DNA from: Labia minor
Lineage: Eukaryota; Arthropoda; Insecta; Dermaptera; Spongiphoridae
Length of the DNA: 64,000 nt
Assembly (NCBI GenBank): GCA_963082975.1
Contig: OY720344.1
Span: 93,439,228-93,503,227 of the forward strand
Direction: 5' to 3'
The notes under the pieces were generated by a model, which had not been told where the DNA came from, searched no databases, and saw only the letters and a program-made list of their open reading frames with translations. Both the position numbers and the translations under genes were made by a program. Positions 29,756-57,079 of the stretch are shown here, piece by piece. Within the stretch, counting starts at the first letter, position 1. Every line of letters starts with the position of its first letter.

Positions 29756-31027
29756 GAGGAAACCAGCCAAAATCGGACCCCCCTTTTGTTTTTAATTTTT
29801 TTTAAATATAAAACTACTATATATTCAGGCTTTGTGTTACTAAATATTTGTCTTATATTGTTTTCTACCATATACTGTACAATTTTCGTTTGTTTCGTAA
29901 AAATTAGTCGGTTAAAAAAATATTTAGTAAAACCTTCCAGTGTTTTACAAAATAAAAATAACCTGCCTAAATCGGACCCCTCAAGGAAATATTTTTAAAC
30001 TCGTAAATTAAATTTAAAAAGGGTTTTAAACAATAAAAAACCATATATTCATATTCCCAGGATATGTTTATTAAATTGGAAGCATACAAATTTCGTATTT
30101 TATAATAAATCAAACAATTTTGTAGATAGTCTATGTTCGTCTGAAATGACATGATTATGTAGAAATGATTCTATTCAAAATACAAAATTCACAAATGTAA
30201 ACATCCTTATCTGCTCCAGAACAGTCTACATGGGCCCACAATGAACACATGTCATACATGACCCATAGCTCTCCTTTATGGTCATTCGAATATTTTTCCT
30301 CGAAGACCAATTATATCCGATACCTTGGATTGTACCACAGTAATTCCAGTTTCGTCAACGTTATATATTCTGTAAGGAGTGAATTTACTTTTATCATAAA
30401 CATTTTCTAAAAGATTGTAAAACTTCTGGGTGTTTCCATGGCAAGACAGTAATGTACTAACTCCTCTTCAAGGGATTTGGTTAAAACAGTAGGTCTACCT
30501 CGCTTTGTTTGAACCGCTTCTTGAAATGTACCATACTTTATGTCAGACAATCTCATAAGGGTTGTTTTTGGGACGTAAAAAAGCATACTTGCTTTCTTCC
30601 AACCAATTAATAAGGGGGTCCGATTTAGGCAAGATAAGGGGGTCCGAATTAGGCCGGTGTGGTCAAAATGTTTGAATGTCAATAACTTTTAAACAAAAAG
30701 CTCAAATCATATGGCTTAAGCAATAAACATACCTACAACCTTACCATTTAAGAATATATAAATGTTAAATGAATTACCTTTCAGTTTCGAGGCAAAATGA
30801 TTAAAAATGCATTACACACACAGAGAAAAAACTTTTGAAACTCACTTAACACGTAATGGCTGACAACTAATAGTTCAATAATGCGGGTGACGCGAAAGCT
30901 CGACTACAGTGTGGAGGAAGCCTAAACTTCATTTTAAAGACTTTGCCACTAGAGTTTAGGTCAATTCAGCGTCAGTACACTAAGGGGTCCGCTTTAGGCA
31001 GGGGGTCCGGATTTGGCTGGTTTCCTC
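29756..31027 (-). mobile_element. pogo/Tigger-like element, internally deleted
   Basis: Terminal inverted repeats GAGGAAACCAGCC and GGCTGGTTTCCTC sit between TA dinucleotides (29754-29755, 31028-31029), as expected for Tc1/mariner-pogo insertion. A motif of the type CTAAATCGGACCCC recurs six times: two near the left end (about 29770, 29968) and four inverted on the right (about 30616, 30639, 30984, 31004). The minus strand keeps an N-terminal HTH fragment and a piece of the catalytic core. At 1272 bp it is a deletion derivative. Confidence 0.9.
30250..30682 (-). pseudogene. pogo/Tigger-like transposase remnant
   Basis: The minus-strand segment 30682-30430 resembles a psq/CENP-B-type helix-turn-helix (STLMRLSD-like: TTLMRLSDIKYG) followed by GRPTVLTKSLEEELVHYCL. 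In another frame, 30342-30368 reads YNVDETGI, the first catalytic aspartate block. The HTH and core are closer than in intact transposases, so a large internal deletion plus a frameshift has occurred. Confidence 0.82.
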
Positions 31028-53736: not shown

Positions 53737-54209
53737 ACATAGAGCAGTGGTTCTTAAACTGTGGTCCGCGGACCCCTGGGGGTCCGCGAAGCCTTTACTG
53801 GGGGTCCGCGGTCCTCGGAAAAAAATCATCGTAAAAATATATACATATATAAATATTTAAAGTTCATTGTTTAACTATATGCTCCTAGAGAATTACGGCT
53901 ATAATTTAATACTATTAATAATACTATTTTATTTTATTAAATTGATAATTATGTCAATTAATTTTTTGTGAATAAATAAACATATATAAAAAACTATATA
54001 TAAAATTTGAATTTTCATCCATTCATTCATTTAAAATCATTTTTCGATTGTTCCTTTAAAATAACCCCTCTTAGGGGCTCGGAAGGGGAGGCATATAAGG
54101 GAATTTTCTTTCACTTTGTTATTGGGGAAAACCAGGGGAGGGGACAGTCTTACCCGGAAAAACCCAAATTGTCAGCGTCCACTCTGGGGTTTTAAACAGT
54201 TTTAAAGCA

Positions 54210-54319
54210 AATGTTAATTATAAGTTCATTTCTCAACGAGTTGTATCTTTAAATTATTTTTATTAATGTTAATTATAAGTTCATTTCTCAACGAGTTGTA
54301 TCTTTAAATTATTTTTATT
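54210..54319. repeat. 55-bp tandem duplication inside the hAT element
   Basis: Two head-to-tail copies of a 55-bp unit beginning AATGTTAATTATAAGTTC. They lie in the transposon's 5' non-coding region and appear identical. Confidence 0.9.
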
Positions 54320-54507
54320 AATTTAATTAATTATAATTAAATTATAGCTAATAATAGTTTATTATAGCTAATAATTTTTTTTAATTTTTAGTGTAATTTG
54401 CATGATCATTATTTTATAAAAACACTAAACACATTTTGCAATTTCCCAGAAAGGCTGTTTTTGAGAGTAAGTATAAGTTAGTTTTATGAATAAAAAATAT
54501 TTATTTT

Positions 54508-54740
54508 AATAATATTTTAGAATCAAATTACGAAATTAATAATATTTTAGAATCAAATTACGAAATTAATAATATTTTAGAATCAAATTACGAAATATAT
54601 TTATTATATAAATTAATATTCATTTAAAATGATATTAAATCATTTATTTAAAATGATTTAAAACATTTATTAAAATGATTTAAAACATTCATTTAAAATG
54701 ATATTAAAACATTCATTTAAAATCATATTAAAACATAGCT
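54508..54740. repeat. Short tandem repeats upstream of the transposase
   Basis: Three 30-bp units (AATAATATTTTAGAATCAAA...) at 54508-54597 are followed by four to five imperfect copies of AAAATGATTTAAAACATT to 54740. Such arrays could bind transposase or just be slippage products. Confidence 0.85.
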
Positions 54741-54825
54741 AGTAAATAATAATTCGTTATATTTATATTATATTTATATTATATTTATATTATTGTAGTT
54801 CAATGTTAATAAATTACTCCATAAA

Positions 54826-56685
54826 ATGGATCGTTGGCTACAAACTGGTTCAACACAGAAACGGAAAGAATCAGATGATGAGGCATCAACAGCAAACTCT
54901 ACCAAGAAACGCAAAACTAGAAAATATTCGGATGATTATTTATCATTTGGATTTACTTATATTTGCAACAATGATGTGGAAAGACCAGTCTGCGTTCTAT
55001 GTCAGGAAAGTTTATCCAATGAAAGTATGAAACCTGCTAATCTCAGACGTCATTTACAAACAAAGCACAGCGAGCATGTTAGTAAGTCTATCGAATTTTT
55101 TAAAATGAAAAAAGAAGAACTTAATTCAAGTCAGAAATTGATGGTAAAGACGGGATCTGGTGGTATGAGTAAGAAAGCAGTAATGGCATCATATGAAGTA
55201 GCTCTACTTATTGCTAAAGCAGGAAAGCCGCATAATATAGCAGAGCAATTAATTCTTCCTGCTACAAAAGTAATTACAAATATAATGTTAGGAACTAAAG
55301 CAGCAAACGATATAAATTTGATTTCATTATCAAATGATACGGTTAAGAATAGGATTGAAGACATGTCATGTAATATAAAAGAAGAATTAATATCGAGAGT
55401 GCGCAAAAGTCACTATTACTCATTACAATTGGATGAAAGTACTGATGTCACTAATAATGCCAATTTGTTAGCTTTCATTAGATATGAGTTTGAAAATCAA
55501 ATACAAGAAGATGTATTGTTTTGTGATTCACTACCTTCACGAACGACAGCTAATGACATATTTAACAGTTTGAATAATTTTATAACCGAAAATGAAATAG
55601 AGTGGCCAAAATGTGTTGGAATTTGCACTGATGGTGCTCGTGCAATGTCAGGTACAAGAACTGGATTGATTGCTCTTATTAAAAATGTTGCGCCTCAGGT
55701 TGTTTGGAATCATTGCTGCATTCACAGAGAATCATTAGCAGCCAAAAATATGTCACCAGATTTGAAAAGAACATTAGACGAAGTAGTTAAAATTGTCAAT
55801 TTCATTAAGGCTCGTCCACTTAATTCCAGAGTTTTTAAAATTTTGTGTGAGGAAATGGGTAGTCAACATACACATTTATTATTACATACAGATGTACGTT
55901 GGTTGTCCCGCGGGAAAGTACTCATTCGCCTTTTTGAGCTTCGAGATGAAATACGATTGTTTTTAATAGATGCGCATTTTGAACTGACCGAATGTTTCAA
56001 TGATTTTATCTGGTTAGCTAAGGTGGCTTACTTGACTGATATTTTTACAAAATTGAACGAACTTAATTTGAGCCTGCAAGGTACTGTTGTAAATATATTT
56101 AAAGTTGAAGATAAAATAGAAGCAATGATTAAAAAAATCGACTTGTGGTCGAAACGCATCCAGAACGGTGTATATGAGTCTTTTCCAACTCTCAATGATT
56201 TCATAGAAAGCTCCAGTGAAAAATTGCTTAATCAAACGCGTCAATTATTTGTTGAACATTTAATTACTTTGAAAAGCAACTTCAGGAAGTATTTTTCTAC
56301 TCCTGATCCTTGCAATAACTGGATCAGAGATCCATTTAATATGGAAATTACAAATGCTAAACATTTATCTGCACCTGAACAAGATATTCTCGTGGAATTA
56401 TCATGTGATACAACTTATAAACTAAAATTTAACAAAACTGAATTGAGCAACTTTTGGTTACTTCTCAGGTCAGATTATCCTGCGCTTGCAAATAAAGCAC
56501 TTCAACACTTGATTCCATTCTGCACAACATATTTATGCGAACAAGCTTTTTCGGTACTATTTTATGTTAAGTCTAAATATAGAAACAAATTAAATGTAGA
56601 GCCGGATCTTAGATTAAAAGTTTCCAATATTAAGCCAGATATTGAGATTCTTGTTTCAAGAAAACAACTGCATACATCTCATTAA
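54826..56685 (+). CDS. hAT transposase, BED-finger, Buster/ZBED5-like, 619 aa
   Basis: A cut-and-paste transposase acting on the ends of its own element. An N-terminal basic segment (KKRKTRK) could be a nuclear signal. A BED zinc finger follows with C56, C59, H76 and H81. The RNase H-like core shows D203 in QLDESTDV and D269 in CTDGARAMSG. The C-terminal hAT dimerisation block has E572 in LCEQAFS. Spacing D-D of 66 residues and the length agree with active hAT transposases. The frame has no stop or frameshift. The start at 54826 is the first ATG of the frame; a TATTGTAG acceptor-like site precedes it at 54791-54798. AATAAA follows at 56865. The domesticated ZBED5-type proteins belong to the same group, but terminal repeats and target duplications show this copy is a transposon. 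Confidence 0.93.
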   Translation: MDRWLQTGSTQKRKESDDEASTANSTKKRKTRKYSDDYLSFGFTYICNNDVERPVCVLCQESLSNESMKPANLRRHLQTKHSEHVSKSIEFFKMKKEELNSSQKLMVKTGSGGMSKKAVMASYEVALLIAKAGKPHNIAEQLILPATKVITNIMLGTKAANDINLISLSNDTVKNRIEDMSCNIKEELISRVRKSHYYSLQLDESTDVTNNANLLAFIRYEFENQIQEDVLFCDSLPSRTTANDIFNSLNNFITENEIEWPKCVGICTDGARAMSGTRTGLIALIKNVAPQVVWNHCCIHRESLAAKNMSPDLKRTLDEVVKIVNFIKARPLNSRVFKILCEEMGSQHTHLLLHTDVRWLSRGKVLIRLFELRDEIRLFLIDAHFELTECFNDFIWLAKVAYLTDIFTKLNELNLSLQGTVVNIFKVEDKIEAMIKKIDLWSKRIQNGVYESFPTLNDFIESSSEKLLNQTRQLFVEHLITLKSNFRKYFSTPDPCNNWIRDPFNMEITNAKHLSAPEQDILVELSCDTTYKLKFNKTELSNFWLLLRSDYPALANKALQHLIPFCTTYLCEQAFSVLFYVKSKYRNKLNVEPDLRLKVSNIKPDIEILVSRKQLHTSH

Positions 56686-56720
56686 ATATGTAAGTTATAT
56701 TTAATGAGATAGATGCAGTT
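56666..56720. repeat. Hairpin across the transposase stop codon
   Basis: The 24-base arms 56666-56689 and 56697-56720 pair with two mismatches around a 7-base loop. The left arm contains the last five codons and the TAA stop (56683-56685). It may be a recent inverted duplication or a 3'-end processing structure. Confidence 0.85.
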
Positions 56721-56864
56721 ATTTTTTAAAATATTTCTTATTTAATATTTTCTGAAAAAAATTATAAAATATTTATATGAATTTAATGTAAGTACCCATT
56801 ATAATTTGTGAGATTTGTTGCTATGACAATGTTTGTATTTTCTTTCTTCAATATTATAATTTCT

Positions 56865-56870
56865 AATAAA
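56865..56870 (+). terminator. Transposase polyadenylation signal
   Basis: AATAAA 180 bp after the stop codon, followed by TGTGTT. Confidence 0.6.
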
Positions 56871-57079
56871 ATGTGTTCTACAATATGCAAAAAAATCGTT
56901 ATTCACCAATCACTGTTAGAAATATTCATCATATATCCTTGTCCTTATGAGATCGTAAGCCAGAAATTAATTAATAAAATGACGTAAAGTACCTAAAGTT
57001 GTGATGGGGGTCCGTCAAAAAAAATTTTTTCAAGTGGGGGTCCGTGGAGTACATAAGTTTAAGAACCTATGACATAGAG

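What the first reader, a model, noticed from the sequence alone, without database searches (positions are those of the whole stretch)
53745..57071. Intact Buster-like hAT transposon that may still be active
The sequence shows paired terminal repeats, a perfect ACATAGAG target duplication and a 619-codon transposase with all expected motifs (BED C56/C59/H76/H81; D203, D269, E572). Known hAT biology says these are sufficient for cut-and-paste movement. That the copy is active is inference.
Basis: partly seen in the sequence, partly recalled or inferred. Interest (0 to 1): 0.75.

Follow-up and report, generated by a model that had tools for sequence, protein, structure and literature searches.

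The report
Jumping gene caught mid-invasion
This is a complete cut-and-paste jumping gene of the hAT group; the same genome carries over a thousand near-identical copies, most of those checked full length, so the family has spread very recently and is probably still moving.

Summary
Window 53745-57071 is a 3,327-bp hAT element with a 14/16 terminal inverted repeat, a perfect ACATAGAG duplication and an open 619-codon transposase. D203/D269/E572 align with Hermes D180/D248/E572.

The 604-Mb genome holds 1,467 exact 67-bp 5' ends, 1,418 exact 84-bp 3' ends and 1,555 exact copies of a coding 63-mer. All 47 insertions read on both sides have perfect 8-bp duplications, 46 of type nnnTAnnn (Buster). 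Of 86 copies with both exact ends on 42.7 Mb of contig C1, 78 are 3.1-3.5 kb and 3 shorter.

The window copy belongs to a sublineage with exactly eight exact matches (G at position 137), at eight sites on three contigs, three within 22 kb, with one substitution in all. That one is the window copy's own: I581V, seen nowhere else in an exact 63-mer search.

A catalytic-Asp mutant (D269V) occurs as two 100% identical copies at different sites, so working transposase acted in trans.

Recent family activity is well supported. Present activity is likely but untested, and activity of this copy is unproven. New member of a known kind.

The parts
53745..57071 (+). complete hAT (Buster-like) element, 3,327 bp
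53737..53744 (.). left target-site duplication ACATAGAG (nnnTAnnn)
57072..57079 (.). right target-site duplication ACATAGAG
53745..53760 (+). 5' terminal inverted repeat CAGTGGTTCTTAAACT
   Evidence: 14 of 16 bases match the other end
57056..57071 (-). 3' terminal inverted repeat CATAGGTTCTTAAACT (on the minus strand)
53778..53808 (+). 5' subterminal repeats, two copies of GGGGGTCCG (53778-53786, 53800-53808)
   Evidence: 8 found in the window, 0.01 expected; 4 of the 8 in this element
57006..57044 (+). 3' subterminal repeats, two copies of GGGGGTCCG (57006-57014, 57036-57044), same orientation as at the 5' end
53881..53881 (+). diagnostic G (element position 137) that marks an eight-copy sublineage; the other 27 of 35 copies aligned have C
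54210..54319 (+). 55-bp minisatellite, 2 units, upstream of the ORF; unit number varies among copies
54506..54596 (+). 30-bp minisatellite, 3 units, upstream of the ORF; unit number varies among copies
54826..56685 (+). transposase ORF, 619 aa, in one open frame
   Evidence: open in 19 of the first 24 exact-5'-end copies of contig C1
54991..55068 (+). BED-type zinc finger, C56/C59/H76/H81
   Evidence: Pfam zf-BED 16.7 bits, below the curated cut-off of 20.6
55432..55434 (+). catalytic D203 codon
   Evidence: aligned with Hermes D180
55630..55632 (+). catalytic D269 codon
   Evidence: aligned with Hermes D248
56539..56541 (+). catalytic E572 codon
   Evidence: aligned with Hermes E572
56566..56568 (+). 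V581 codon (GTT), private to the window copy in exact 63-mer searches; the sibling state is ATT (I581)
   Evidence: 1 match genome-wide; 1,555 with A
56661..56725 (+). hairpin over the stop codon of the transposase, -27.4 kcal/mol as RNA
56865..56870 (+). AATAAA, possible polyadenylation signal
   Evidence: motif only

Best explanation
An autonomous hAT element of the Buster type in a very recent, probably ongoing expansion. The BED and catalytic domains of the 619-aa transposase should bind the terminal and subterminal repeats, cut the element out with hairpins on the flanks (hAT chemistry, recalled from Hermes), and insert it at an 8-bp nnnTAnnn target, which is then duplicated. Shown here: precise insertions with independent TSDs, a palindromic target preference, paralogous empty sites, one nested self-insertion, local clustering of one sublineage, and movement of a D269V copy, hence action in trans. 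Inferred: expression, the hairpin intermediate, copy gain through replication timing or gap repair, and activity in living individuals. The window copy is one of eight descendants of a single recent source; whether its V581 protein works is not known. The confidence given is for a very recent expansion by transposition of a coding family; that it is still going on I hold at about 0.65.
For: Exact 67-bp 5' ends 1,467, reversed-pattern controls 0. Exact 84-bp 3' ends 1,418. Coding 63-mer 1,555. Perfect TSD in 35 of 35 copies with both exact ends, 34 with TA at positions 4-5, in 9 of 9 further copies with both sides read, in both halves of a nested self-insertion and in L071. Eight exact G137 matches and no others, one substitution among the eight copies, three within 22,172 bp where 2e-7 such triples are expected by chance (span chosen after seeing it). 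Paralogous repeats run through the junction for 3 of 44 insertions compared. 19 of 24 ORFs open. L055 and L071: identical over 3,327 bp including D269V, TSDs TCATAATA and CTGTAGAG. Catalytic triad on Hermes.
Against: No transcript, excision or polymorphism data. Four of the 24 ORFs are not open or not openly readable (three stops, one frameshift), a fifth has lost D269, one more copy was not read. The window copy carries a unique I581V. 732 further 5' ends differ by 1-3 bases in 67, so part of the family is older or belongs to other subfamilies; 13 of 100 coding 63-mers on C1 had no exact 5' end within 4.5 kb. Mean noncoding distance to the majority base is 0.097% in 35 copies, about 3e5 generations at 3e-9 (rate recalled): recent, but not necessarily today. 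Gene conversion between copies, which would make them look younger, was not tested.
Confidence: 0.88

Rival explanations
1. The family burst and has since fallen silent (host silencing), so all copies are very young fossils.
For: Stops, one frameshift and D269V in 5 of the 24 first copies; mean noncoding distance about 0.1%.
Against: A sublineage of eight with one substitution in 26.6 kb and a perfect D269V pair place some transpositions within roughly the last 10^4 generations (317 to 70,000 for the sublineage at a recalled 3e-9).
Confidence: 0.3
2. The near-identical copies come from segmental duplication or assembly duplication, not from transposition.
For: L007 and L008 lie 1.6 kb apart.
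Against: 47 of 47 insertions read on both sides have a perfect 8-bp TSD, and paralogous empty sites exist. The three clustered copies have the TSDs GACTAAGG, CTTTAAAA and CTATAGAC. Among 44 junctions compared, shared flanks were the short known overlap of L007 with L008 and dispersed repeats.
Confidence: 0.02
3. The window copy itself is inactive: I581V or silencing disables it and it is carried only as a substrate.
For: V581 is 1 of 1,556 exact coding matches; Hermes also has Ile nine residues after its catalytic Glu.
Against: Ile to Val is conservative; outside this base the window copy is identical to its seven sisters.
Confidence: 0.3

Closest known systems
Buster1 (hAT, Buster family; planarian, twisted-wing parasite, Rhodnius, Heliconius; PMC4298943, passages read)
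   Same: TIR CAGGGCTTCTTAAACT (Rhodnius) against CAGTGGTTCTTAAACT here, 14 of 16; subterminal tandem repeats (TGGGTCGCG there, GGGGGTCCG here); Buster-type insertion bias
   Different: There autonomous copies number 3-17 and non-autonomous ones 17-270 per listed form; here about 1,400-1,550 exact matches, and 78 of 86 both-end copies sampled are full length. No Buster1 sequence was available for alignment.
TcBuster (Tribolium; PMC3499496, passages read)
   Same: 8-bp TSD with consensus nnnTAnnn; hAT transposase
   Different: Sequence not compared here; the single-sequence PDB search matched no chain at all.
Hermes (Ac family of hAT; PDB 8edg, 2bw3, 4d1q, 6dww)
   Same: Catalytic D, D, E and the RW motif align; same C-terminal region
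   Different: Found only with a three-sequence profile, not with the single sequence; the Ac-type target preference (recalled) is not the one seen here
Mar, MITE family with a Buster relic (Drosophila willistoni; PMC3517528, passages read)
   Same: nnnTAnnn TSD
   Different: There short non-autonomous copies and a relic transposase

Membership tests
hAT superfamily | 8-bp target-site duplication (feature as given in PMC3942097, passages read) | tested here: met
   47 of 47 insertions read on both sides
hAT superfamily | short terminal inverted repeats (10-25 bp) and length 2.5-5 kb (PMC3942097) | tested here: met
   16-bp TIR, 14 matches; 3,327 bp
hAT superfamily | transposase with D, D, E aligned with Hermes | tested here: met
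   D203/D269/E572 on D180/D248/E572; in the three-way alignment the D269 column has an E in L065, with the Asp one residue off. The fold itself was not obtained.
hAT superfamily | C-terminal hAT dimerisation region (PF05699) | tested here: inconclusive
   20.1 bits against a curated cut-off of 21.4; the same region aligns with Hermes in the profile search
hAT superfamily | BED zinc finger | tested here: inconclusive
   C56/C59/H76/H81 present; zf-BED 16.7 bits, cut-off 20.6
Buster family of hAT | target consensus nnnTAnnn | tested here: met
   34 of 35 (exception L023, ACGTGGAG) and 12 of 12 further insertions
Buster family of hAT | transposase groups with Buster in a hAT phylogeny | not testable with these tools
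   no reference Buster transposase was at hand
Active transposon | new insertions or excisions seen in living material | not testable with these tools
   one assembly only; no reads, transcripts or second individual
MITE or non-autonomous family | short deleted copies outnumber full-length ones | tested here: not met
   78 of 86 both-end copies are 3.1-3.5 kb, 3 shorter, 5 longer; 14 of 100 5' ends had no exact 3' partner. Exact ends only; diverged short relatives were not counted.

The most novel reading that the evidence does not exclude
A DNA-transposon invasion caught in progress that has reached well over a thousand copies almost only as full-length, mostly coding elements. Dead copies are carried in trans, yet the internally deleted derivatives that usually take over have not. 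Either the invasion is so young that derivatives have not yet arisen, or internal sequence is needed in cis.
Probability: 0.45. Interest if true: 0.68.

Novelty: new member of a known kind. Interest (0 to 1): 0.52.

Why it matters
Autonomous DNA transposons are commonly found outnumbered by defective derivatives (so for Buster1 in PMC4298943, passages read), and the early phase is rarely available. Here a Buster-type hAT stands at about 1,400-1,550 exact matches, with 19 of 24 sampled frames open, few deletion derivatives among young copies, a dated sublineage and a documented trans-mobilised dead copy. That makes local hopping, the timing of defective takeover and host silencing testable in one species. 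The I581 transposase, seen unchanged in 70 of the 71 copies listed, is also a candidate for a gene-transfer tool alongside TcBuster.

Tried and rejected
Single-sequence AlphaFold2 model: mean pLDDT 33.9, useless, so no fold search was made. The single-sequence PDB search found nothing; the three-sequence profile did. Relatives in IMG/VR, GTDB genomes and phage records: none, so horizontal transfer could not be examined; no collection of animal genomes was at hand. The first DNA searches returned eight copies, which looked like a total but were only the best-scored; the exact-pattern counts corrected this. Idea that transposase acts only in cis, which would explain the lack of short derivatives: rejected as a strict rule by the identical D269V pair. 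Idea that the 71 copies listed (the window copy and 70 with one residue different) show purifying selection: rejected, they were the best-scored. In the 21 of the 24 census copies read as DNA, 16 distinct nonsynonymous or stop changes stand against 4 synonymous ones, as for copies drifting after insertion; the 18 were taken mainly because they were absent from the list, so on their own they lean to changed proteins. The 3-bp insertion at position 0 is an artefact of fuzzy end matching. Ten other window ORFs of 120 aa or more gave no Pfam match at E 0.001.

Full report
OBSERVATION. The element is at the stated coordinates. It runs from CAGTGGTTCTTAAACT at 53745 to AGTTTAAGAACCTATG at 57071, flanked by ACATAGAG on both sides. 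The terminal repeats agree at 14 of the first 16 positions. Four GGGGGTCCG motifs, two near each end and all in the same orientation, are far above chance (8 in the window, 0.01 expected; the other four lie in another element near 29.8-31.0 kb). Pfam finds the hAT dimerisation and BED models only below their curated cut-offs. A profile of this protein and two other hAT transposases of the same genome (L065, L066) matches Hermes in the PDB at about 1e-17, with D203, D269 and E572 on Hermes D180, D248 and E572.

COPY NUMBER. The window lies in G000, a 604-Mb assembly of 71 contigs. The exact 67-bp 5' terminus occurs 1,467 times, 2,199 times with up to three mismatches; the exact 84-bp 3' terminus 1,418 times; a 63-mer of the coding end 1,555 times. 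Reversed control patterns gave 0 in each of these calls. At 3.3 kb each, 1,467 copies would make about 4.8 Mb, 0.8% of the genome (arithmetic).

FULL LENGTH. I paired the listed places, all on contig C1. Of the first 91 5' ends, 87 have the exact coding 63-mer downstream on the same strand within 4.5 kb, 81 of them 2.6-2.9 kb away; conversely 13 of 100 coding 63-mers have no exact 5' end. Of the first 100 5' ends, 86 have an exact 3' end on the same strand within 8 kb: 78 span 3.1-3.5 kb, 3 are shorter (2,995, 2,742 and 1,782 bp) and 5 longer; the other 14 have no exact 3' end. Exact ends favour young copies, so older derivatives are under-counted; the flank of L042 seems to hold a diverged short relative. 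Length differences among full copies lie mostly in minisatellites upstream of the ORF.

OPEN FRAMES. The first 24 exact 5' ends on C1 (0-10.5 Mb) form a small census. Eighteen were read as DNA: 14 have an open 619-codon frame, three have a premature stop and one has 13 gap bases in the frame, taken as a frameshift. Five more appear in the protein search with 619 aa and no stop. One was not read. So 19 of 24 are open (95% interval 58-93%), 18 of them with the full catalytic triad.

INSERTIONS. Of 37 distinct copies in the first sets, 35 had both exact ends (L020 and L034 were set aside for that reason). All 35 have perfect 8-bp TSDs and 34 have TA in the centre; flanking bases show a palindromic AT preference. 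Of the 18 copies, nine were read on both sides and nine on one side only, because the fetched stretch was cut. The nine read on both sides, the two halves of a nested self-insertion (L020/L069: inner copy inverted, TSD CTCTAGGA, inside an outer copy with TSD GGCTACTG) and L071 agree, for a total of 47 of 47 perfect and 46 of 47 with central TA. Of 44 rejoined junctions compared with the window and the fetched loci, three (L021, L036, L041) lie in dispersed repeats whose other copies run through the site without the element.

TIMING. Among 35 copies the mean noncoding distance to the majority base is 0.097%. The coding figure is biased, because most of these copies were found by protein score. 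A less biased clock is the sublineage marked by G at element position 137 (window 53881). An exact 63-mer with this G occurs eight times in the genome: in the window copy and L002-L008. A copy with G137 and a further change inside the 63-mer would be missed. These eight have eight different TSDs on contigs C1, C4 and C10 and differ by a single substitution in all. At a recalled rate of 3e-9 per site per generation this gives about 12,500 generations, with Poisson limits of 317 to 70,000, if gene conversion is ignored. Three of the eight lie within 22,172 bp, which chance does not explain (2e-7 expected triples; the span was chosen after seeing it). This looks like local hopping, a known habit of hAT elements (recalled). 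Over 100 copies of C1 clustering is mild: 10 neighbours closer than 20 kb against 4.6 expected.

THE WINDOW COPY. The one substitution of the sublineage is the window copy's own: GTT instead of ATT at codon 581. In exact 63-mer searches the window form occurs once and the other 1,555 times. Hermes also has Ile nine residues after its catalytic Glu. The change is conservative; its effect is unknown.

TRANS ACTION. L055 carries D269V, which should abolish catalysis (inference from Hermes D248). The same 66-mer occurs at one other place. That copy, L071, is identical to L055 over all 3,327 bp, including the synonymous change at codon 330 and the noncoding change at 538, but sits at another site with another TSD. 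So a copy without the catalytic Asp was moved after the mutation, with transposase from elsewhere. The alternative, that D269V left activity intact, is unlikely but untested.

MECHANISM. Shown: precise insertion, target choice, trans action, recent amplification. Inferred from hAT biology (Hermes, recalled): excision with hairpins on the donor flanks, strand transfer with an 8-bp stagger, copy gain by moving during replication or by repair of the gap from the sister chromatid.

COMPARISON. The TSD consensus is that reported for Buster elements (PMC3517528, PMC3499496; passages read). The TIR (14 of 16) and the presence of subterminal repeats resemble Buster1 (PMC4298943, passages read), where autonomous copies number 3-17 and non-autonomous forms 17-270. 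The reverse ratio here is the unusual part. A Buster placement by phylogeny could not be tested. The mitochondrial contig is consistent with an invertebrate host (COX1 is open under table 5; other codes that read TGA as Trp were not compared); the species is unknown.

Noticed in passing
window 29756-31027: A second DNA-transposon-like element with about 27-bp terminal inverted repeats (GAGGAAACCAGCC... / ...GGCTGGTTTCCTC) and internal GGGGTCCG-type repeats.
   Followed up: partly
window 56661-56725: A long hairpin spans the last transposase codons and the stop codon; L037 has a 92-bp insertion at this place that seems to duplicate it.
   Followed up: partly
L004 1476-1492: The left flank ends in AAGTTTGGGAACCTATG directly before the TSD, like the 3' end of a related hAT that sits at the same target.
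   Followed up: no
L053 and G000:C1:12842297-12846264: Two copies span 3,968 bp; L053 has an extra stretch of about 640 bp near element position 246. If the other holds the same insert, an element with extra DNA has itself moved.
   Followed up: no
G000 contig C14, L070: Mitochondrial contig with COX1 matches in two opposite orientations (17173+ and 25478-); by eye the frames of L070 read as ND2, COX1, COX2. Either an assembly palindrome or a head-to-head dimer.
   Followed up: no
L067 (C1 1-700): Contig C1 begins with a satellite of about 160-bp units containing AAAACCTAGGGTCATCCTACGATGACCT.
   Followed up: no
genome-wide: Many other hAT sequences: 150 scored of 3,604 candidates for PF05699, including open frames of 636 and 868 aa (L065, L066).
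   Followed up: partly
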